A DNA stretch of 64,000 bases. Source: Amycolatopsis thermalba. GTDB lineage: Bacteria > Actinomycetota > Actinomycetes > Mycobacteriales > Pseudonocardiaceae. Positions 2 to 11,178 of the stretch are shown here, piece by piece (within the stretch, counting starts at the first letter, position 1; every line of letters starts with the position of its first letter). Location: NCBI RefSeq assembly GCF_003385215.1, contig NZ_PQHW01000001.1, positions 124,001 through 188,000 of the forward strand, given 5' to 3'. The translations under genes and the position numbers were made by a program. The notes beneath the pieces are model-generated. The model was given only the letters and a program-made list of their open reading frames with translations, searched no databases and had not been told where the DNA came from.

Positions 2-781
2 GAGGGACGAGCGTTCGATGGAGCGTTCGTTCTGCTTCGCGACGACGCGCTCCTGCTGGAGCTGCGGGAGAACGTTCAGGCACTCCTCGCGCACCCGGCG
101 GCGGAAGTCCTCGACACGAGAGACGTCAGCGAGATCCGCGGGGCGGTGACGATCATTCGCCAGGGCATGAAGGACGTGCTCGCCCAGCGCCGGCGGCTCA
201 CCGCGACGTTGAAGGAGCACATCGTCAACCGCGACGTGCTCCAGGAGCGCGAGCTCGACCGGGTGTTGCGAGGGATCGAGCGTGAACTGGCGAAGTGGAT
301 GGAGACCGCGGGTCCGCGAGCCCCGGTTCCGGTCGAACTGCTGCCGCCCGTGGCGAAGGTGGGCCACCTGCGTACCCGGCTCTGGGATCCCGCCTCGGCC
401 GAACCCCCGCCGCCACTGGAACGGGTCGACGACGACGGTCTGGAGCCACCCACGGTCGAGGAGCTGCGAATGCAGGGCGGGCCTTCGCTTGACGAGCTGC
501 GGGCGGCGTTGATCGACGCCTTCACCACCGGCAACAGTGACACGGTGGGACATCTGTTCAATGAACTGCCGAAGCGACTGCGGCGCCCCGTCGAGGTTCT
601 CGGGCTCCTCCACCTCGTGTCGCGTATCGACGCGATGAGTGACGACGACGAAACCGAGGTGTTCGAAGCGATCCGCCCGAACGGCGATCGACGTCACTTC
701 CTGGTACCCAGGATGTCCCTCACCCCTACCGAAGCCGCAGCGCTCGCCGGTCTCACACTCAACGGATCCGCTGGTGAGTGA
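2..781 (+). CDS. jetA: Wadjet subunit JetA (DUF3375 family), C-terminal part, 5' truncated
   Basis: The reading frame is open from the first bases of the window to a TGA, giving 259 visible residues. The gene starts upstream, so only about the C-terminal half is seen. It is called JetA mainly from context: it directly precedes JetB, JetC and JetD and shares an 8-base overlap with jetB (GTGAGTGA). The visible part is mostly helical, with acidic and arginine-rich stretches, which fits the kleisin/winged-helix role of JetA in the Wadjet SMC complex that recognises and linearises plasmids. The DUF3375 assignment is from recalled family pattern and could not be searched. Confidence 0.8.
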
Positions 782-1625
782 CACCACGGACGAGTCGGCC
801 GAGAACGCCGCTTCGCACTTCCTTCAGGCTGGCGCTGGCGAGGACTTCGACTCGCACTTCGACGACGACACCGAACTCCTCGACGACGACACCGAATTCC
901 TCGGCGACGTCGACGAAGGCTTCGCCGGCGAGGAAAAGCAGGAAGGATCGTCGCTGGTACTGTTCGAAGGAGACGCGGGCGGTCTGTCGCTCGAACAACG
1001 CCGCGCCTTGGTCGCACTGCTGAAGCACCGGTTCATCTCGGCGGCACGGAATCCCGCGGAATGGCGCGTCATCCGAGAGGATCCGGTTCCGATCAAGTCC
1101 CGGTTGAACGACATGTTCCTCGATCTCCACGTGGATCCGAACCACGAGGTCGCGTTCAAACAGCAAGCGGCCTCCGAAGGTGGCGGGCGGGAGTTTCCGA
1201 CGCTTCTCCACGACACGGTGTACACCCGTGAGGAGACGATTTCGCTGGTGTTCCTGCGGCACCGATTCCAGAGCGAACGAGCGTCCGGGCACGAAGACGT
1301 CACCGTCGAACGAGACGAACTCATCGCGCACATTGCCTCGTTCCGGCCGGCTCACGCAACCAACCGCGCGGGTGACGAGTCGAAAGCCAACAACGCCATC
1401 GACAGCCTGATCAGGGCGAAGGTCCTCACTCGCACCAATGACGCGTCCCGTTTACGGATCTCTCCGGTCATCGCGGTCCTGCTGCCGTTGCGAAAACTCC
1501 AGGAGCTGTGGGAGTGGCTCATGCAGCTCAACGGCACCGAACCCGGCACCGGGGCAGACGACGCGCTCGCTGTCGACCCTGCCCATGCGGCTCCCGCGAA
1601 AACCGAGGGAAAGGCATCCAGTTGA
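774..1625 (+). CDS. jetB: Wadjet subunit JetB (DUF4194-like)
   Basis: Start chosen at the GTG overlapping the jetA stop, giving 283 residues; an upstream in-frame start inside jetA is unlikely. An acidic tract near residues 20-60, built on a repeated DDDTE-L motif, is followed by a helical region and a winged-helix-like part (residues about 80-250) as in DUF4194 proteins. In Wadjet, JetB acts as the KITE-like subunit that binds JetA and the JetC heads. The stop overlaps the jetC TTG start, so translation is probably coupled along the operon. Confidence 0.85.
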
Positions 1626-4600
1626 CGACTAACCACTCCGAGCGGCAGCTGCTCCGCCTTCCCGGCACCACCGAGGGGGCCACGCAATGGAAGGTCGACA
1701 CGCTCCAGCTGATCAACTGGGGCGGCTTCCACGGCCACAGCATCGTCAGCTTCGCGCCGACCACCACCCTGCTGTCCGGCGCATCCGGGACAGGTAAGTC
1801 GACCTTGCTCGACGCCTACATCGCGGTGATGATGGACTCCAACATCCCCTTCAACGGCGCGTCCAACGACGCGACCGTCGGACGTGCCCGAAGCGCCGAC
1901 CAGCGTAGCCTCATCTCCTATCTACGCGGCAAGCTGGATACGAGCCGGATCACCGGTGGCGGGTTGGCCGACCAGGTCCTGCGGGGAGAAAGCTCCGCGA
2001 CATGGGGGGCGCTGGCGGTCACGTTCGTCGACGACAACGAACATCGCTACACCGTCGCCCGCCTCTACCACGTTCCCCGCGCGGCTACCAAGGACAGCGA
2101 TCTCACCCGGAAGATGTGCATCGTCGAAGGCACGATCGACCTGTCCGAGGTCGAGCCCTTCGCCAAGGACAAGTTCGACAAGCGGACGGTCGAGGGCAGA
2201 TTTCCGAACCTGAAGATGCACGAGACCTACGGGTCGTTCTCCCAGGCGTTCTTCACGCGGCTGGGTATCGGCGCCCACGGCGACGGCGCCAAGGCACTCC
2301 GCCTGCTCGCGCGCATCCAGGCCGGATACCAGGTCCGCACGGTTGACGACCTGTACAAGTCCATGGTCATCGACCTACCGGGTACCTACGCCGCCGCGGA
2401 CGACGCGGTCGAGCACTTCAAGAATCTCGAAGACGCCTACGACGCGATGGAGACCGAGGGACAGAAGTCCGAGGTTCTCGCCCGGATTCCCGAGCTGCAC
2501 CGGGACCGGCAGGAAGCACTCGAGAAGGCTCGCCTGATCGACACGTTCGGTATTCATCGAAGCGGGGACACGCCGTTCACTGTGTGGATGCTCGGTACCG
2601 AAGACACCCTGCTCGAAACGGCCGAAACCGCCAGGCGCAGCCAGCGGGCCCAAGCCGTCAAGGACAAGGGTGAAGCCGAAAAGCGACATGCCGAGCTGAC
2701 ATCTCGTAAGATCGATGTCGAAGCCGACCTCCGCAAGAACGAGTCACATGCGACGCTCGCCCGTCTCGAAGCGGAGATCAACCGGCTCGGATCCGACTTG
2801 AACGCCGCGTCCGCCCAACGCGCCACCTTCGACGAGCTGACGGCCCGGCTCGGCCTCACCATCGACAACGAGGACGACTTCACCGCCACCCAGAAGCAGT
2901 CCCGCACGTTCGTCGACGGGTTCGAGGCCGCACTCGAGGTCGTCAATGCGCGACGGCACGCTCTTCAAATCGCCGTCTACGAGCCCAGCAAGGAGAAAGG
3001 CGAGCTCGTCGACGAACGCGACTCGCTGGCACACCGCGAAGGACGCATGGATCCGAAGCTGGACAAATCGCGGATGATGATCGCCCACGCGACGGGTATC
3101 CCGCCGGAGGACCTGCCGTTCGTCGGCGAGCTCCTCGACGTGCCGGCTGAGCAGAGGAAGTGGCGGAAGGCCATCGAAACCACTCTCTTCGGCCTCGCCC
3201 GCGTCCTCCTCATCGACGCAGACGAGCTCGATCGAGTCTCTCGTGTGATCGACCCACTCGACCTTCCGCACCGAGTCAACTACGAAGGAGTGCATCTCAC
3301 TTCGTACGAACCCAGAGATTTCGACCCGGCCTACGTGTCGGGGAAACTGGACTACAAGCCCACGCGCTTCACCGCATGGGTCCAGGACCGCATCTCCGGC
3401 GCCGGCGTCGATGCGTTGTGCGTCGACAATGCCGGCGGGCTGGGTGGAGGGGGCCGCCGCGTCACAGTGAATGGCCAAACCCGCAGGGGAAGGTCCGGCG
3501 CTCACGGCTCGATCAACGCGCCGTACGTCATCGGGTTCTCGAAGGAGGAGCGCCTGGCAGAGATCGAGACCCGCCTCGACGAACTGGAGAAGGTCCTCGG
3601 CGATCTCGACAGACGGCGAGCCGACGTCGACCGCGAGTTCACAGCGCTCCTCGCGGACAAGAGCTCCCACGAACACATCCTCTCCACCAGGTGGCGCAGC
3701 ATCGATCCCGACGGCGTCCAGCGTGAGATCGACAGCCGAGAACAGCAGAGGAAGCGCATCCTGGCCTCGGACGACGCCCTCCGCACGTTCCAGACCGAAC
3801 TCGAAGCCCTCAACACCAGCTTGAAGGACGCCGGAGGCAAGATCTACGCGGCCGAGCAGACCATCGAAAGGCTCGATGCCGACCTTGGCGAGATCATCGA
3901 CCGGAAGGACCACATCGTCGGGGAACTCCAGCGCATCAACCGTGAGCAGGCCGTCACGCTCACCGACGAGCAGTCAGCCTATCTCGACACCGAGTTCGCA
4001 CAGGTCGCAACCGTAGGAGACCTCAGTGGGTTCCGAGCTGGGGCCGGCCGCCTCAAGGGGAGGCTCGTCGAACTCGAGCAGGGAGAACTGGGCAAGGCCG
4101 ACAAGGCGACGCAAGCACTCGAAACCGCGTTTCAACGGTATCTGGACCGGTGGGACGACCCGAACCTGTCAGCCTCGATCGAGAACTACCCGTCATTCCG
4201 GCGCATACTGGACAGCATCGTCGCCACCGGCCTCCACGAGCGCCGACAGGAATGGGCGAAACGGCTCACGGACTGGTCCGGACAAGATCTCGTACCGCTC
4301 GCCGGCGCGTTCGGTCTCGCGATCGACGACATCCGCAACCGGCTCGAACCCGTCAACAAAATTCTCGCACAACTCCCGTTCGGCGCCCACCGTGACCGGC
4401 TCAAGATCGATCTGCGCGAGTTGAACCGCGACGACATCAAGAAGTTCAAGAGGGAACTGAACACTCTGTCCCGAGCCGACATCGACGCCTTCACCGACGA
4501 CCAGGTCCAAAAGTGGTACAGGAAACTACGCCGGTTCATGGGCGCGATCCGGAAGGACACCGCCGGCAAGAACAACCGCGACTACTTCCTCGACGTGCGC

Positions 4601-5026
4601 AAGCACATCGAGATCACCGCCGTCTCCTACGACAGTCACGGTCGTGAGCGGTCAACCTACGCCGCGCTCGGCGGGAAATCAGGTGGTGAGTCCCAGGAGC
4701 TGGTCGCCTTCATCGTGGGCGCCGCACTGCGCTTTCAACTCGGCGACGAAACCGACGCACGCCCCGGATTCGCGCCCGTTTTCCTCGACGAAGGATTCGT
4801 GAAAGCCGACAGCGAGTTCGCGGGCCGTGCGGTAGACGCGTGGAAGGGCCTCGGTTTCCAGCTCATCATCGGCGCCCCGTACGGCCAGTTCACCGCGCTC
4901 GAGCCACACGCCAGCCACTTTCTGTACATGGCGAAGAACAGCCGCGGCTACTCGTCCGTGAAGACCCTTTCCCGAACGGAACGCCGAGCGGACGCACAGG
5001 CAGACGTCACCGAGATGCCCGCATGA
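1622..5026 (+). CDS. jetC: Wadjet SMC-like ATPase JetC
   Basis: SMC/SbcC-type ATPase of 1134 residues. Walker A is GASGTGKS at residues 53-60, the ABC signature SGGES is near 1020-1024, and Walker B ends in FLDEG with D1056-E1057. Two long charged helical arms (about 300-480 and 640-900) flank a hinge region, the usual layout of a DNA-loop-extruding motor. Start is TTG at 1622, which overlaps the jetB stop and follows a GAGGGAAAGG ribosome-binding site; a start further upstream would run deep into jetB. The gene overlaps jetD by ATGA. All ATPase motifs are intact, so the motor is probably functional. Confidence 0.93.
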
Positions 5027-6189
5027 AAACGCCCGCCGACGTCCTCGCCGACATCCGTCGACGACTCGACCGCACCTGGGCCGGTGACGTCGCCGGCGCC
5101 ACGACATCGTGGCCACACCGGTTCGCCCTCGGCACGACCACGAAGACCCAGCTCGAAGCCGGCTGGCAAACCATCTACCAGCCGCGAATCCGGCAGTGGC
5201 GCGACTGGGCCCGAGGACGTCCGGTACGGCTGCACACCCAGCAGAAGCGGGTATACACCACGACCCAGGACATCCCCACGCACCTCGAAATCGTCGATGT
5301 CGGCAGCGCCGCCGCTGTCGTCGGCGATGGCTGGGAGAGACGACTCGCGAAAGCGCGGGCTCACCTGACTCGTGTCACCACCCACTTCCCCGCCGCCGCC
5401 GACCCCGCCCTCGTCATCCGCACAGCCAACCGCTACGAGGACACTGACTTCGAGCTCCTGCTCACCGTCGCCGCCTGGTTCCAGGCCCACGACGCCAGTG
5501 GCTACACACCACGTCAGGTCCCGATACCCGGTGTCCACTCCAAGTGGCTCAACACCCATCAGCCGCTGATCCTCGCACTCACCGGACGTGACAGCCTCGG
5601 CCTCCTGCCCAAACACCCCGCCCGCATCCACTTCAGCTACCTCGACCCCACCTACCAAGCCTCGGGCGCACGTCGCCACGACTCCGCGAGCGTCGGCGAC
5701 AGCGTCACGCCCGCTTACGCCCCGACCGTGGTCATCATCTCCGAGAACAAAGACACCGCGATCCACTTCCCGCCCATCACCGGCGGTATCGCCGTCGAGG
5801 GTGGTGGATTCGGTGGCAAGACCGCGGCCGCCTTCCCCTGGCTCACCGCCGCGCCGCACCTCTACTACTGGGGTGACATCGACGCGCATGGCTACGAAAT
5901 CCTCAACGGCTGGCGCGACGACGGCGTGCCTGTCGCCAGCATCCTCATGGACACCACAACATACGACACCTACGAGCCCTACGGCACCGATACAGACCAA
6001 CGGGGCCAACGCCTCGAACCGGGAAGCCCCAAGTCCCTGCCACACCTCACGCCGGACGAGCGCGCCGTTTATGAACGCCTCACTGACCCGATGTTTCGCG
6101 GTTACCGGCGCATCGAACAGGAACGCATACCGCTGCACACCGCCGCTAGCGTCGTCACTGCTCGCACCGCGTCCTCGAACGGGCACTGA
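5023..6189 (+). CDS. jetD: Wadjet nuclease subunit JetD (DUF3322/DUF2220, Toprim-like)
   Basis: 388-residue protein whose ATG overlaps the jetC stop by 4 bases. The C-terminal half has a Toprim pattern: the acidic residue in ISENKDTA (E241) and the DxD in WGDIDAHG (D285, D287), the residues expected to bind metal for DNA cleavage. The N-terminal 150 residues match the JetD arm that docks on the SMC core. JetD is the subunit that cuts circular plasmid DNA in Wadjet. The gene closes the operon; after its stop the sequence becomes gene remnants. The intact catalytic residues suggest an active nuclease. Confidence 0.92.
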   Translation: MKTPADVLADIRRRLDRTWAGDVAGATTSWPHRFALGTTTKTQLEAGWQTIYQPRIRQWRDWARGRPVRLHTQQKRVYTTTQDIPTHLEIVDVGSAAAVVGDGWERRLAKARAHLTRVTTHFPAAADPALVIRTANRYEDTDFELLLTVAAWFQAHDASGYTPRQVPIPGVHSKWLNTHQPLILALTGRDSLGLLPKHPARIHFSYLDPTYQASGARRHDSASVGDSVTPAYAPTVVIISENKDTAIHFPPITGGIAVEGGGFGGKTAAAFPWLTAAPHLYYWGDIDAHGYEILNGWRDDGVPVASILMDTTTYDTYEPYGTDTDQRGQRLEPGSPKSLPHLTPDERAVYERLTDPMFRGYRRIEQERIPLHTAASVVTARTASSNGH

Positions 6190-6467
6190 TAGCGGCTCAC
6201 CTTCGGGGCTCCGCGGTGCCTGGATGACCAGCGGGATCCGATGTTCTAGCGCAGGTGTGCCGTCGACGGGGTGCCAGGGATGAGCTGGATGTTCGGTGAT
6301 CGCTGGAGAAGTCAGGTCGGTGCCACGGCCACCGGAGTCACCGCCAACCGGGCAGCGACCACCGAGGACTGGAGCGGGGTGATGCCCCCGAGAGGGAAGA
6401 CGGGCACGTACGCGACGACGTCGGTGGCGAGCCGACTGCCGGCGGTGCCGCGGCCGCCTGTCGGCGG
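6190..6467. other. Non-coding or decayed stretch after jetD
   Basis: No intact gene is visible. On the minus strand one open segment of about 40 codons (roughly 6345-6450) reads TDVVAYVPVFPLGGITPLQ and ends in a stop; it looks like the tail of a lost protein but I cannot assign it to a family. The rest is GC-rich sequence without codon structure. Together with the toxin-antitoxin remnants next door it suggests a recombination zone at the edge of the Wadjet operon. Confidence 0.35.
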
Positions 6468-6742
6468 TCAGGTGCCGAAGCGGAAGCCGGCCGGGTCGCG
6501 TGGCGGCGTGAGGCCGGGACGCGTCCACCGGGCCAGATGCTCCGCGGCCTCCGGGTCGGCACCGTTGAGCCCGTGGAACACGAAGACGCCGTCCACCCCA
6601 GCCGCTTGTTGCCGTCGATCAGCGGAGGGTTGCGCACGATCGACTTGAGGAGGACGGCGGCCTTCTCGTGCAGGCCGGGATAGGCGTCCTGCCCCATTAC
6701 CGACACCTGCGGGCGGTGCGCCGCGGAGTCCAGCAGCCCGAC
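6468..6742 (-). pseudogene. Doc/Fic-family toxin remnant, frameshifted
   Basis: Minus strand. One frame reads VGLLDSAAHRPQ, then DAYPGLHEKAAVLLKSIVRN, then LIDGNKRLGW, the core of Doc toxins (Fic fold, DGNKR part of the HxFx(D/A)GNKR loop). The first residue of that motif is Asn instead of His (RNPPLIDGNKR), which would itself remove the catalytic base. After NKRLGW a frameshift moves the reading into VFVFHGLNGADPEAAEHLAR and on to a normal-looking C-terminus ending FRFGT. The N-terminal part of a Doc protein is absent. The gene is almost certainly dead. Confidence 0.75.
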
Positions 6743-6889
6743 GTGCTCCTTAGGTCCTGGCCCGCGCGGAACGCCTTGCCCGCGCCGGTCAGCACCACCG
6801 CGCGCACCGCCGCCTCGTGCTTGCTGACACCCTGCGCCTCGGCGAGCATCGCGAGCGCGCTCCTGCTCCTCGGTCAAGCGCAAAGTCAT
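6743..6889 (-). pseudogene. Antitoxin remnant joined to an enoyl-CoA-hydratase-like segment
   Basis: Minus strand. It starts MTLRLTEEQERA, typical of ribbon-helix-helix/CopG-like antitoxins paired with Doc. It then needs one frameshift to continue as LAMLAEAQGVSKHEAAVRA. The following part, VVLTGAGKAFRAGQDL then KEH after another shift, does not look like antitoxin; it resembles the oxyanion-hole segment of crotonases (VVLTGAG-AFCAG-DL). The segment then runs into the Doc remnant. It looks like a deletion scar joining pieces of different genes. The crotonase reading is pattern recognition only. Confidence 0.6.
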
Positions 6890-6928
6890 GACCACGCACC
6901 CGACGCTACCAAGCTGGTATCAAGATCA

Positions 6929-9900
6929 TCAGGCGCCGAAGTGGACGTGGGCCGCCCACACGGACGGGAGGTTCGGGTACTTCTCCCGCAGCGCGCGGGC
7001 CGTCCGGTGCACCGCCGTCGCCGCCGTCCCGGCTCCGGGTGTGAGCAGGTCCCGGTAGATCCACTGCGCCAGCACCGGCGCGACGGCGTCCTCCACCCGC
7101 CACAGCGTGCCGACGACCTGGGCGAACCCGGCGATCTGGAACGCGGCCGCCGGGTGGATCGCCTCGTCGGACAGGGTTTCGCTCGTGCGGGCGGTGTCGC
7201 AGGCGGACAGGTAGGCGAACCGCGCGTCCGGCAGGCGCAGCCGGGACACGTCGACCACGCGCAGCGGGGCGCGGGCGTGGTCGTGCAGCACCAGGTGGCT
7301 GTCCGACGGGTTGTCCGGATCGCTGTACCCGTGGCAGGCGAAGTGCACCCAGCCGGCGGACGGCAGCGCGTCGAGAACGGCGTCGCGGGTGGCGTCCGCG
7401 CCGGTCAGCACCGTGGCACCGGGGACGTGGGCGGCGAGGAACTCCGCTTCGGCCCGCGCGCCGGGCAGGTCGGAACCGTCCGGAGTGGACGGCATCGCGA
7501 CGACGAGCAGCCGCGGCCGCTCGCCACTCCCCCGCCGCCGCGTCCGCGCGTGGGCCAGCGCCCGGACCGTCGGCGTGACCGACGAGATCACCCGGTCCAT
7601 CACCGTCGGGCCGCCGCCGCGGTGGTGTCCGGCGGCGTGCAGCGGGAGCAGGCTGAGCACGCCGACCGGCGCCCACCAGATCCGCGATCCGGTCACCCCG
7701 ATCGCGTCCAGCACCGGGCCGGTCACGGTGTCCCACAACCATTCCAGTGTGTCGTGGATCGTGCGCTCGGCGGCCTGCCGCTCACCGGGTTCCGCGGCCA
7801 GCGCGGCGCGGAAGGCACGCACCCGCTGCCGCAGCGCGTCTTCGGTCAGGTCCGGCAGCGGCCGGGCGCGGACGCCGTCCGGGGTGAGGATCACCGCGTC
7901 GCACCGGTAGCGGCTGACGTTGACGTAGACCACCGGGCCCTCGTGCGCCTGCGCCGTCAGATCGTCCAGCGACGGCGGCCGGAGGAACCGGTCCAGCCCC
8001 GGCAGTTCCCGGATGCGCGCGGCCAGCGCCTCCAGTTCCGCGGCGAGCGCGAGGCGGTCCCGCGTGGTGTCGGTTTCGAACTCCGCACCCAGCGCCTCGA
8101 ACTCCGCCGCCAGCCCGGGCGCCCGCTCGCGCAGCTCGGACAGGTCGCCGCGGCTGTCGAGCGCCTGGGCCGCCAGCACGCAGCGGCCGGACTCCAGCAC
8201 GGTCACCGCACTCTCGGGGTCGCCCGCGTTCAGCGCGCACGCGGCCGCGTCGGCGGCGAGCCCGGCGAAGCGGCCCAGCCAGTACTGGGCGTCGCCCCGG
8301 TCCAGACGGCGGCCGGCGAGCTGGGGCAGCAACCCGACCGCGACCGCGTAGCCCTCGGCCGCCGTCGCGGGCAACCCGCCCTCGGCGGCCAGCTCGCCCC
8401 ACCGCTCGGCCGCCTCCACCCGCCGGACCGTCGGTGATCCGGCGAAGAGCGCGGCCTCGCGGTAGACGTCGAGCGCCTCGGTGAGCGCGTCGCGGTCGCC
8501 GGACCGGCGGAACCGCAGCCGCAGCGCGTCGGCGAGCGTGCTCAGCGTCGTGGTCCGCGAGAACGCCTCGCCCTCCCGGCCCCGGACCGCGTCACGCGCG
8601 AGCGCGACGGCCTCGTCGAGGATCGCCGGGTCCGTCTCCCCCGCACCGGGCCGCGCGGACCAGTCGCACAACGCCCCGGCCAGACCGGCCACGTAACCGG
8701 CTCGCTCCGGGCTGCCCTCGGCGGCCGCGGCCACCGACGCGCGCCGCGCGGCGATCGCCTCGCGCAGGGCGTTCTGGTCGCCGGACCGGGCGTAGGCGGT
8801 GCCCAGGGCGCCGCCCAGGTTCGCCAGGCGCAGCGCGCGGTCGGGGTGGCCGGCCGGGGTCGCGTCGGCGGCGGCGCGGTGCACGCGGATGGCCTCGTCG
8901 AGGGCTTCCGCCCGGCCCGTCCGCTCGAACCAGTCCGACAGCATGGTGGCGAGGTTGCCGAGATGGCGGGCGTGCCCGGCGACGCGGCCGGCGCCCAGGC
9001 GGACGGATTCCCGCGCGGCGTCGAGCGCGTCGGTCAGCATCCGCAGCTCGCCGGTGACGCGGAACCGGCGGTGCAGCGTCGCGGCGAGGTTGGCCAGCAT
9101 CACCGGATGGTCCGGGTGCCCGGCGGTCGTGGCGGCGGCCGCGCGGGCCGCGTCGATCGCCTCGGTGAGCAGGGCGAGCTCGCCGGTGGCGAGGAACAGC
9201 GTGTTCAGCGTGACGGCGAGGTTGCCCAGGTACCGGGGCCGCCGCGGGTCCCCGGACGGCGCGCACCGGACCGCTTCCCGTTGCAGCTCCACCGATTCCG
9301 TGAGCGCGGCGCGGTCGCCGAACGCCTCGCCGCGCTGCGCCAGCGCCGCCGCGAGGTGGTCCAGCCGCTCGGCCCGGCGGGGTTGCCCGGCGGGCGTGGC
9401 GGCGATCGCCGCGCGGCCGTGCCGGACGGCCCGCTCCAGCAGTTCCGGGTTCCGGGTCCGGCCGAACTCGGCGGCGAGCAGGCCAGACATTTCGGCCTCC
9501 ACCCCGGCGCGGTCGGCCAGGTGCCCGGCGCGCTCGGGGCGTTCGCCGGTGAGCGCGGTCCACTCGCGCTGGGTGAACAGCAGGTTCGTGGAGAACCGCG
9601 AATACCTCGGGTCGCCGGGCGGGGTGATCGCGACCAGGGTGGTGCGGGCTTCGAGCAGCTCGGCCAGGTCGTCGCGGGTGCCGGTGAGCCGGTGGCGGTC
9701 GTCGAGCAGGACACACAGGTGCGCCAGCCGGTCCAGGTGGTCGGCCGAGCCGGCCGGGGTGAGCTCGACGGCACGGCGCGCCGCGTCGACGGCCTCCGGC
9801 AGCACCGCGGGGTCACCGGTGTGGGAGAACCAGCGGCGGAGCAGAACCGCGAGGAAGTGCAGGCTGCGGCCGGTGATCTCGTCGTCCGGTGCGTGGCGCG

Positions 9901-10396
9901 CCGCGTCCCGCGCCTGCTCGATGCCTTCCCGCAACGCGTCCTCGTCGCCGGTCACGGTGAACACCGTCAGCAGCGCGACGACGAGGTTGTCCTGGTAGTC
10001 GGCCTTGTCCTCGGGCGCCGCGCCCTCGACGGCCTGCCGGCTCCACCACACCGCGTCGTCCAGGGTGGCCGGGTCGCGGTTGTGCTGGAACGCGGTGTGC
10101 AGCACCATGCCGAGGTTGTTGGCGTGGGCGGCTTCCTCGGCCGGGCGGTCCGCGGTGAGCAGGACCGCCTCCAGCAGGCCGTCGACGGCTTCCCGCAGGT
10201 AGCTCAGGTCGCCGGTCTGGTGGAACCGGGTCTGCAGCAGGCCGCCCAGGTTCCGCAGGTAGGTGGTGCGCTCGTCGCCGCCCGCGGCCGCGAGCGCCTG
10301 GCGTCCGTACTCGATGGCCGTCTGGACCGAGGCCGGGTCCGGGCTGTGCCGGGCCACCCGGTAGGCGTCCCAGAACCGCTCGCCCCAGTCGGTCAC
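6929..10396 (-). CDS. TPR-CHAT protein (caspase-like protease domain)
   Basis: 1155 residues, GTG start three bases after the stop of the 46-residue gene. Residues about 10-700 are tandem helical repeats of the TPR kind; the unit of roughly 45-50 residues recurs with patterns such as LGGLLQTRFHQTGD and LA-LL-RF--TGD---L-EAV. The C-terminal 300 residues are a CHAT domain: WAPVGVLSLLPLHAAG strand, VHFACHG with His1022, and YLSACDT with Cys1066, the expected catalytic dyad. CHAT proteases fused to TPRs act as sensor-effector proteins in bacterial conflict systems, for example Csx29 of type III-E CRISPR. Here there is no CRISPR context; the partners are the two genes upstream in the operon. Protease activity is inferred from the dyad. 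Confidence 0.9.
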   Translation of the reverse strand: MTDWGERFWDAYRVARHSPDPASVQTAIEYGRQALAAAGGDERTTYLRNLGGLLQTRFHQTGDLSYLREAVDGLLEAVLLTADRPAEEAAHANNLGMVLHTAFQHNRDPATLDDAVWWSRQAVEGAAPEDKADYQDNLVVALLTVFTVTGDEDALREGIEQARDAARHAPDDEITGRSLHFLAVLLRRWFSHTGDPAVLPEAVDAARRAVELTPAGSADHLDRLAHLCVLLDDRHRLTGTRDDLAELLEARTTLVAITPPGDPRYSRFSTNLLFTQREWTALTGERPERAGHLADRAGVEAEMSGLLAAEFGRTRNPELLERAVRHGRAAIAATPAGQPRRAERLDHLAAALAQRGEAFGDRAALTESVELQREAVRCAPSGDPRRPRYLGNLAVTLNTLFLATGELALLTEAIDAARAAAATTAGHPDHPVMLANLAATLHRRFRVTGELRMLTDALDAARESVRLGAGRVAGHARHLGNLATMLSDWFERTGRAEALDEAIRVHRAAADATPAGHPDRALRLANLGGALGTAYARSGDQNALREAIAARRASVAAAAEGSPERAGYVAGLAGALCDWSARPGAGETDPAILDEAVALARDAVRGREGEAFSRTTTLSTLADALRLRFRRSGDRDALTEALDVYREAALFAGSPTVRRVEAAERWGELAAEGGLPATAAEGYAVAVGLLPQLAGRRLDRGDAQYWLGRFAGLAADAAACALNAGDPESAVTVLESGRCVLAAQALDSRGDLSELRERAPGLAAEFEALGAEFETDTTRDRLALAAELEALAARIRELPGLDRFLRPPSLDDLTAQAHEGPVVYVNVSRYRCDAVILTPDGVRARPLPDLTEDALRQRVRAFRAALAAEPGERQAAERTIHDTLEWLWDTVTGPVLDAIGVTGSRIWWAPVGVLSLLPLHAAGHHRGGGPTVMDRVISSVTPTVRALAHARTRRRGSGERPRLLVVAMPSTPDGSDLPGARAEAEFLAAHVPGATVLTGADATRDAVLDALPSAGWVHFACHGYSDPDNPSDSHLVLHDHARAPLRVVDVSRLRLPDARFAYLSACDTARTSETLSDEAIHPAAAFQIAGFAQVVGTLWRVEDAVAPVLAQWIYRDLLTPGAGTAATAVHRTARALREKYPNLPSVWAAHVHFGA

Positions 10397-10399
10397 GGG

Positions 10400-10540
10400 T
10401 CAGTCCTCGGCCGCCTGGGAGGTGCCGGCGGACCCGGCAGGCGGGTCCTCGGGTTCGGTGACCTCGCGCTTGGGCGTGTAGCCGCGCGACACGCTCGTGC
10501 GCACGATCTCCTCCTCTTCGGGGGTGAGTTCGCGGTCCAT
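10400..10540 (-). CDS. 46-residue acidic small protein in the CHAT operon
   Basis: Short ORF whose ATG overlaps the stop of the DUF6338-like gene (TGATG) and whose stop lies three bases before the CHAT GTG, so it sits translationally coupled between the two. The sequence starts MDRELTPEEEEIVRTSVSRG, is helical and acidic at first, then basic (YTPKREV), then a disordered Pro/Ala/Glu tail. No signal peptide or membrane segment. I recognise no family. Its position between a membrane protein and a CHAT protease makes it a candidate adaptor or protease substrate, which is only inference. Confidence 0.65.
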   Translation of the reverse strand: MDRELTPEEEEIVRTSVSRGYTPKREVTEPEDPPAGSAGTSQAAED

Positions 10541-11178
10541 CACTTCTCCTTCCCCTGGTCCGGTTCGACGAACTCCAGCACGTCGAAGTCCTCCGCCCGC
10601 AGCCGCAGGCCCGCCGTGCCGTGAACGCGCGCGCCGAAGCTGCCGTCCGGGCCCATCACGCGCGCCGATTCGAGGTACAGCTCGGGCGGGTGCGGGTAGG
10701 AGGAGGCGTAGGAGCGGTGGCCGTACCAGCCGCCCGCCCAGTTGCCGTCCTTGAGGCGGACGCGGATGAAGCACGGTTCGCGGTCGCGGAAGGCGTGGTC
10801 CCAGCCGGTGGGGGTGCGCAGGTACCGCGAGCCGCGGCGGCGGCGCTCCACCAGCGACACCGCGCCGGCCGCGAGCGCCGGGACGACGAGGAACAGCAGC
10901 ACCGCCACCGCGCCGACCAGACGGGGCTGCTCGGTGAACCCGGTCCAGTCGCCGGGCCCGGTGCCCCGGGCGAGCCGGACGAGCGCGGGCCCGGCGACGA
11001 TCGCGTAGGCGGCGTCGAGGGCGATGGAGGCGACGATCGCGCGCAGCACCCGCTCGCCGAGGTCGCGCTCCCCCGGCACCGGCCCGCGCCGCCGTTCGCG
11101 CACGAACTGGTAGGTGATGCCGGGCAGCACGAGGAGGACGAGCAGCGCGAGCTGCACGACCGTCGACGGTGCCTGCAT
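10540..11178 (-). CDS. DUF6338-like membrane protein
   Basis: 212 residues, ATG preceded by GGGAGGGG about 8 bases upstream. Three hydrophobic helices: residues about 5-22 (VVQLALLVLLVLPGITYQFV), 43-65 and 85-108. A soluble C-terminal domain of about 100 residues follows, with the conserved-looking block GNWAGGWYGHRSYASSYP and a later YLESARVM. This layout matches DUF6338 as I recall it; no function is known for that family. First gene of a three-gene operon with the 46-residue peptide and the TPR-CHAT protein, so it probably places the module at the membrane. Confidence 0.75.
   Translation of the reverse strand: MQAPSTVVQLALLVLLVLPGITYQFVRERRRGPVPGERDLGERVLRAIVASIALDAAYAIVAGPALVRLARGTGPGDWTGFTEQPRLVGAVAVLLFLVVPALAAGAVSLVERRRRGSRYLRTPTGWDHAFRDREPCFIRVRLKDGNWAGGWYGHRSYASSYPHPPELYLESARVMGPDGSFGARVHGTAGLRLRAEDFDVLEFVEPDQGKEK

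What the first reader, a model, noticed from the sequence alone, without database searches (positions are those of the whole stretch)
6929..11178. Candidate undescribed three-gene module: DUF6338-like membrane protein, 46-residue peptide, TPR-CHAT protease
The three genes are translationally coupled (TGATG overlap, then a 3-base gap). The large protein has an intact His1022/Cys1066 CHAT dyad and about 700 residues of TPR-like repeats. CHAT-TPR proteins are known to cleave specific partners (Csx29 cleaves Csx30), but here no CRISPR genes are present. The unknown small protein is acidic, then basic, then disordered, as a substrate or adaptor could be. The membrane gene would place the event at the membrane. 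The module sits beside Wadjet. Novelty and function are inference.
Basis: partly seen in the sequence, partly recalled or inferred. Interest (0 to 1): 0.72.

Follow-up and report, generated by a model that had tools for sequence, protein, structure and literature searches.

The report
Protease, micropeptide and membrane-protein trio
Soil bacteria carry a conserved set of three genes, a caspase-like protease, a tiny disordered peptide and a small membrane protein, that looks like a protease-controlled membrane switch, possibly for defence against viruses; its function has not been tested.

Summary
In detail: three genes at the stated places, 1-base overlap, 3-base gap, intact His1022/Cys1066 dyad.

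The trio is conserved. A DUF6338 search blind to the protease found the same order in 18 of 20 named loci. In a DUF6338 tree, one clade of 23 rows (support 98/94) has peptide and TPR-CHAT beside it in 23 of 23, whether the protease gene is in-line, convergent or divergent. The dyad is intact in 41 of 41 CHAT domains beside DUF6338, against 15 of 20 homologues without it.

The reading needs correcting. The peptide belongs first to DUF6338: related G-Y-x-P peptides follow DUF6338 genes on proteobacterial plasmids and prophages without CHAT. Six DUF6338 loci have a caspase-TIR pair instead. Wadjet is an incidental neighbour. Most TPR-CHAT homologues lack DUF6338, and many DUF6338 genes lack a protease neighbour.

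Models: DUF6338 has three membrane helices and an Sm-like barrel; the protease resembles separase and Csx29.

Best reading: a protease-gated membrane effector held by its peptide. The linkage is well supported; mechanism and defence role are inferred. The literature searches made found no description of the trio.

The parts
10540..11178 (-). DUF6338 gene (212 aa): three predicted transmembrane helices, then a cytosolic Sm-like beta domain (about residues 136-204)
   Evidence: Pfam PF19865 E 2.9e-68; hydropathy peaks 3-21, 44-62, 87-105; AlphaFold2 model, mean pLDDT 65, beta domain about 77-87; Foldseek best PDB hits Sm/LSm proteins, best E 2.2e-3, probability 1.00
10400..10540 (-). 46-aa disordered acidic peptide; RGYTP motif, CHAT-type acidic N-terminal stretch and EP..P..AG motif
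   Evidence: translation; conserved in 18 of 20 loci and in 23 of 23 rows of the DUF6338 clade; motif counts
6929..10396 (-). TPR-CHAT cysteine protease gene (1155 aa), dyad His1022/Cys1066
   Evidence: Pfam PF12770 E 3.9e-47; dyad invariant in 41 of 41 CHAT domains beside DUF6338; model mean pLDDT 79; Foldseek best hits human separase and Craspase TPR-CHAT

Best explanation
The three genes make one protease-gated membrane module. DUF6338 is a small membrane protein with an Sm-like ring-type domain on the cytosolic side and is the likely effector. The disordered peptide is its dedicated partner, docking through a [RK]-G-Y-x-P-type motif and holding it inactive. The TPR-CHAT protein is a separase/Csx29-like cysteine protease that senses a trigger through its long helical array and, once active, cuts the peptide (or DUF6338 near it), releasing the membrane protein to damage or depolarise the membrane. 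Most likely this serves defence against phages or plasmids by stopping the infected cell. Shown by the evidence: linkage of the three genes, conserved catalytic dyad, peptide tied to DUF6338, predicted folds. Inferred: docking, inhibition, cleavage, membrane damage, defence. My odds: the three work together 0.9; protease acts on the peptide or DUF6338 0.5; the gated-effector order of events 0.35; immune role 0.55.
For: Gene order kept in 18 of 20 loci found blind to the protease. One DUF6338 clade of 23 rows (98/94) with peptide and CHAT within 1.7 kb in 23 of 23, the CHAT gene in-line, convergent or divergent: linkage that survives rearrangement argues for shared function. At least 6 of 23 DUF6338 genes over the cut-off in 100 related genomes lie within 1.5 kb of a CHAT gene, against 0.05 expected; in Streptomyces 16 of 22 loci within 1.7 kb, one a remnant and one a weak CHAT. 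Dyad H/C intact in 41 of 41 (three genomes appear twice) against 15 of 20 without DUF6338. Small G-[YWHF]-x-P ORF with a ribosome-binding-type start behind DUF6338 in 48 of 88 loci, against 6 of 492 other genes in the same loci; outside the CHAT-linked triads 26 of 64. Peptides beside CHAT carry an EP..P..A motif (16 of 17 against 2 of 22) and an acidic N-terminal stretch (12 of 17 against 0 of 22). Caspase-clan proteases of another family (C14 with ThsB-type TIR) stand within about 1.1 kb of DUF6338 in 6 of 88 loci. Mass spectrometry found three proline-rich proteins under 50 aa predicted to share an operon with a DUF6338 gene in Pseudomonas stutzeri (passages of PMC10433244).
Against: No functional data. 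The CHAT-type peptide motifs were chosen after seeing the sequences and sit in one DUF6338 clade, so common descent may explain them. Peptide constraint is modest (median pairwise dN/dS 0.51). 46 of 79 DUF6338 rows in the tree have neither CHAT nor caspase beside them, so a protease is not always needed. The DUF6338 model is of low confidence overall (pLDDT 65, pTM 0.44) and no Sm hit passes E 0.001. PADLOC has no model that matches DUF6338 or this CHAT protein.
Confidence: 0.4

Rival explanations
1. Targeting module: DUF6338 and peptide bring the CHAT protease to the membrane, where it cuts other proteins.
For: All three genes linked in 23 of 23 clade rows; the peptide has elements both shared with all DUF6338 peptides and special to CHAT neighbours, as an adaptor would. 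One different CHAT protein beside DUF6338 (L074, gap 2 bases) begins with a hydrophobic stretch (CHAT).
Against: DUF6338 + peptide occur without any CHAT gene on phages and plasmids, so their shared job cannot only be to place this protease.
Confidence: 0.2
2. Securin-like control: the peptide is a disordered inhibitor or pseudosubstrate of the CHAT protease, and DUF6338 is the sensor that relieves it.
For: Foldseek's best match of the protease is human separase (9hma, E 3.1e-13), which is held by the disordered inhibitor securin (7nj1 is the complex); CHAT-specific peptide flanks.
Against: Related peptides exist where there is no CHAT gene; TPR superhelices attract each other in fold searches, so the separase match is not specific.
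Confidence: 0.13
3. Two neighbours: DUF6338 + peptide is a free-standing cassette (toxin-antitoxin or anti-phage) and the protease is a separate gene that shares hot spots with it.
For: Free-standing pairs on plasmids, a Klebsiella phage and viral contigs; other defence genes beside DUF6338: CBASS-type cyclase and 2TM effector (L139), E1/JAB (L130), SIR2 and a methyltransferase (L147).
Against: 23 of 23 in one clade, tight spacing, overlapping genes, and chance expectation of 0.05 against at least 6 seen.
Confidence: 0.12
4. A house-keeping or developmental membrane-stress system with no role in conflict.
For: The DUF6338-CHAT clade occurs in large free-living actinomycetes; no phage or plasmid phenotype is known; the surrounding genes of the triads are mostly metabolic by eye.
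Against: Patchy distribution (DUF6338 in 23 of 199 Streptomyces genomes), copies on plasmids, caspase-TIR and other defence neighbours in relatives.
Confidence: 0.15

Closest known systems
Csx29 (TPR-CHAT of type III-E CRISPR, Craspase), which cleaves Csx30
   Same: TPR array plus C-terminal CHAT protease with the dyad; nearest solved relative by sequence (7y9x_B, E 6.6e-6) and among the best by fold (7zoq_A, E 2.2e-10)
   Different: 39.2 bits against the NCBIfam Csx29 cut-off of 300; no cas gene among the neighbours scanned; partner is a 46-aa peptide and a membrane protein
Eukaryotic separase with securin
   Same: Helical array plus caspase-clan protease; best Foldseek hit (9hma, E 3.1e-13); a disordered partner
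   Different: Overall TM-score only 0.31; no cohesin; the peptide's relatives occur without the protease
DUF6338 (PF19865) with small proline-rich proteins, Pseudomonas stutzeri
   Same: DUF6338 gene in a predicted operon with several proteins under 50 aa seen by mass spectrometry (PMC10433244, passages)
   Different: No protease mentioned in the passages seen; the paper calls the small proteins not conserved; their sequences were not seen here
TIR plus caspase systems (type IV Thoeris, name recalled)
   Same: Caspase-clan protease beside DUF6338 in 6 of 88 loci; in L131 the order is DUF6338, peptide, TIR, caspase
   Different: The window has CHAT, not C14, and no TIR gene in the trio; DUF6338 is not part of the published system as far as recalled
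Bacterial gasdermins (recalled)
   Same: Idea of a caspase-clan protease that frees a membrane effector
   Different: DUF6338 is three helices plus an Sm-like barrel, not a gasdermin fold; restraint would be a separate peptide
MscS-type channels (recalled)
   Same: Three membrane helices followed by an Sm-like beta domain
   Different: No sequence similarity found; MscS is not in the 50 listed fold hits; channel activity untested

Membership tests
DUF6338 (PF19865) | score above the Pfam cut-off over the whole domain | tested here: met
   229.9 bits against 26.5, profile positions 2-203 of 205
CHAT protease family (PF12770) | score above cut-off and His/Cys dyad | tested here: met
   161.5 bits against 24; His1022, Cys1066
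Csx29 / type III-E CRISPR | NCBIfam Csx29 model cut-off | tested here: not met
   39.2 bits against 300
Csx29 / type III-E CRISPR | Cas7-11 (gRAMP) gene and CRISPR array beside it | tested here: inconclusive
   flanking genes scanned were Wadjet, AraC-type regulator, hydrolase, isochorismatase; no search for CRISPR arrays or Cas7-11 over the whole window was run
TIR-caspase (type IV Thoeris, recalled) | TIR gene next to a caspase-family gene | tested here: not met
   not in the trio or the flanking genes scanned in the window; met in six relatives (in L157 the TIR ORF is short)
Separase | cohesin cleavage and securin control | not testable with these tools
   fold similarity only
Bacterial gasdermin | gasdermin fold in the membrane effector | tested here: not met
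   no gasdermin among the 50 listed PDB fold hits, which are Sm/LSm-type chains; model confidence is low
MscS-type channel | MscS fold or sequence | tested here: inconclusive
   three helices plus Sm-like barrel, but MscS not among listed hits
Known anti-phage system (PADLOC 2.0.0) | match to a defence model | tested here: not met
   none for the three proteins
Toxin-antitoxin | toxicity of one gene, rescue by the other | not testable with these tools
   needs expression experiments

The most novel reading that the evidence does not exclude
DUF6338 plus its G-Y-x-P micropeptide is a widespread, mobile, two-gene membrane effector cassette that different immune proteases of the caspase clan (TPR-CHAT in actinomycetes, C14 caspase with TIR elsewhere) have adopted several times: the peptide is a separate, cleavable safety catch on an Sm-ring membrane protein, doing in trans what the C-terminal domain does in gasdermins.
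Probability: 0.3. Interest if true: 0.88.

Novelty: new variant of a known kind. Interest (0 to 1): 0.72.

Why it matters
CHAT and caspase-like proteases are among the commonest unassigned proteases of multicellular bacteria, and few of their substrates are known. Here a TPR-CHAT subfamily comes with a 46-aa partner and one membrane protein in every relative sampled, so the substrate question becomes testable with three small genes. It also gives a first structural idea (membrane-anchored Sm-like domain) and a recognisable partner peptide for DUF6338, a Pfam family of unknown function found from actinobacteria to proteobacterial plasmids and, by the control search, Haloferax volcanii.

Tried and rejected
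Wadjet as part of the system: rejected, tblastn of its proteins against 24 relatives gave no Jet hit within the fetched DNA. 'The trio is only an annotation accident': rejected by conservation. 'The peptide is specific to the CHAT protease': rejected. A DUF6338 search of viral contigs with the window's own protein found nothing, while one with the Proteus protein found 14 loci. E. coli genomes gave one short match to the caspase part only. Searching the literature for an existing description gave PMC10433244 as the only DUF6338 paper; eLife paper PMC7159879 was searched for CHAT and holds no such word in the main text (passages only). A natural DUF6338-peptide fusion was looked for: some DUF6338 proteins have Pro-rich C-terminal tails (L155, L161) but none with a clear G-Y-x-P motif. 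Structure of a peptide-DUF6338 complex was not modelled, because the tool takes single chains of natural sequence only and I did not build an artificial fusion.

Limits that bear on the counts. The motif test used 17 CHAT-adjacent and 22 other peptides picked to avoid near copies, not all; patterns were set after looking. The RBS score is home-made. The tree used 79 rows after 27 were left out (near copies, fragments and broken genes); of these the 15 triad-type rows also have the CHAT gene beside DUF6338. In one search, 22 of 25 matches were examined (G535 lies at a contig end, G675 and the second piece of the broken G567 gene were not fetched separately). Of the 23 over-cut-off genomes, two (G057, G079) were not fetched; G057 has no CHAT. 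The expected value of 0.05 treats genes as independent; three of the six genomes share one ancestor. L066 is ambiguous: its CHAT gene also has another membrane-protein partner. L184 has only a weak CHAT match and L189/L121 is a remnant.
Full report
What is there. The genome is an actinomycete; its nearest relatives in the search are Amycolatopsis-like (one search names A. tucumanensis at 96% identity of DUF6338).

Is the trio conserved? A scan of named genomes with the DUF6338 protein alone gave 20 loci. In 18 the peptide and the TPR-CHAT gene follow in the same order and strand, in Amycolatopsis, Lentzea, Actinacidiphila, Streptomyces, Saccharothrix, Umezawaea and Actinomadura (in L114 the protease runs off the contig). 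Of the other two, L119 has DUF6338 and peptide with the CHAT gene divergent, and L121 is a remnant. A Streptomyces plasmid carries the trio as well.

Is the linkage more than neighbourhood? In 100 related genomes 23 have a DUF6338 match over the cut-off. At least six of these genes lie within 1.5 kb of a CHAT gene; 0.05 is expected from the CHAT gene numbers of those genomes. In Streptomyces 23 of 199 genomes have DUF6338; of 22 loci examined 16 have CHAT within 1.7 kb, one a remnant and one a weak match. The arrangement varies: in-line (triads, L181), convergent (for example L064, L123, L154, L172, L176), divergent (L119). In a tree of 79 DUF6338 proteins a clade of 23 rows (98/94) has CHAT beside it in all 23, and a peptide in all 23. 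CHAT neighbours also occur outside that clade (L066, L074, L184, L187), and C14 caspase with a ThsB-type TIR stands beside DUF6338 in six loci spread over the tree (L071, L078, L129, L131, L157, L160). Against this, 46 of the 79 rows have neither protease beside them.

The reverse direction is weak. Twenty CHAT loci at about 30-40% identity to the window protein hold no DUF6338, and of 86 Streptomyces genomes that match the protease part only 13 show it beside DUF6338. The four best Streptomyces matches (55-74% identity) all do. In the CHAT tree the triad proteins form one group of 20 rows (92/89; 19 of them 100/99), while other DUF6338-linked CHAT proteins are scattered and the label needs five changes. 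Catalysis seems to matter where DUF6338 is present: the dyad is complete in 41 of 41 CHAT domains beside DUF6338 (three genomes counted twice) and in 15 of 20 without it.

The peptide. Behind DUF6338, a small same-strand ORF with G-[YWHF]-x-P and a ribosome-binding-type start was found in 48 of 88 loci, against 6 of 492 other genes of the same loci; without the start filter 56 of 88 against 33 of 492. Leaving out the CHAT-linked triads it is 26 of 64; these include near copies among the viral contigs. Proteobacterial peptides often have two or three motifs and end in PPPKKP or the like, and Acinetobacter plasmids have two or three such genes in a row. Thirty-two loci had no such motif ORF, though some of them have another Gly/Pro-rich small ORF there. 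Peptides beside CHAT are acidic (mean net charge -9.0 against +2.7) and carry an N-terminal acidic stretch (12 of 17 against 0 of 22) and an EP..P..A motif (16 of 17 against 2 of 22). These patterns were set after looking and lie within one clade, so they are a lead on what the protease may recognise, not proof. Pairwise dN/dS has a median of 0.51: constraint, but not strong.

The proteins. DUF6338 has three hydrophobic peaks and a model with three long helices and a C-terminal beta domain (mean pLDDT 65, beta part about 77-87). Foldseek lists Sm/LSm-type chains throughout its first 50 PDB hits, best E 2.2e-3 with probability 1.00; none passes E 0.001. The viral library also shows Sm-like and RNA-binding small proteins. 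Positive charges after helices 1 and 3 put the Sm-like domain in the cytosol (inference). The protease model (pLDDT 79) matches human separase best (E 3.1e-13, TM 0.31) and Craspase TPR-CHAT/Csx29 (7zoq_A, E 2.2e-10); by sequence Csx29 is the nearest solved protein (E 6.6e-6), but the Csx29 family cut-off is far from met.

How it may work. The order that fits best is: DUF6338 waits in the membrane with its cytosolic Sm-like domain occupied by the peptide; the TPR-CHAT protease is set off by infection; it cuts the peptide, perhaps at the CHAT-specific motif, and the freed membrane protein opens or aggregates and stops the cell. The linkage, the dyad, the peptide-DUF6338 bond in evolution and the folds are shown or predicted here; docking, inhibition, cutting and cell arrest are inferred. 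Other readings (targeting, securin-like inhibition, mere neighbours, non-immune role) are weighed in the rival list.

Defence context. The complete Wadjet beside the window's trio is not shared by relatives. Relatives of DUF6338 sit beside caspase-TIR pairs, a CBASS-type cyclase with a 2TM effector, E1/JAB genes, and SIR2 with a methyltransferase, and in a Tn7-like element's surroundings on a Proteus plasmid. I did not measure this against random genes, so the immune role stays a likely guess.

Verdict. Real, conserved and, by the searches made, undescribed as a trio. It is a new variant of a known kind (caspase-clan protease with a dedicated partner), with a less familiar part: the DUF6338-micropeptide pair.

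Noticed in passing
L082, L083, L086, L088-L091, L095, L097, L099 (and L066): Ten of 20 CHAT loci without DUF6338, and L066, have another membrane protein of about 300 aa (LLVLPGxLY near its start, no Pfam match in the two tested) next to a 90-135-aa protein; a second TPR-CHAT partner set. The small proteins were not shown to be one family.
   Followed up: partly
L093, L094, L096, L101: A CHAT clade near genes that look like rpoB/rpoC (by eye) has Pro in place of the catalytic His, one also without the Cys: probably inactive.
   Followed up: partly
window 2-6189: Complete type I Wadjet JetABCD, JetA cut by the window edge.
   Followed up: yes
window 6271-6928: Between Wadjet and the CHAT gene only short ORFs; one looks by eye like an enoyl-CoA hydratase remnant.
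   Followed up: no
L121 / L189: Streptomyces sp. Ru62 has, besides an intact trio (L110), a broken copy with DUF6338 and CHAT remnants.
   Followed up: no
L065-L068: Four genomes of the window's genus have another DUF6338 subfamily without a G-Y-x-P peptide; L067 lies near a TIR-ATPase-TPR gene.
   Followed up: partly
L134 5692-6442: Klebsiella phage pJN2-26 carries DUF6338 and a two-motif peptide, both annotated as hypothetical.
   Followed up: partly
L131 4659-6879: Proteus penneri plasmid: DUF6338, three-motif peptide, TIR, caspase, just after TnsD/TnsE-type genes.
   Followed up: partly
L139 3591-5594: Mesorhizobium plasmid: CBASS-type cyclase, 2TM effector and DUF6338 in a row.
   Followed up: partly
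L147 2367-6612: Viral contig with a type II-like methyltransferase, a ParA-like gene (by eye) and a SIR2_2 protein in front of DUF6338.
   Followed up: no
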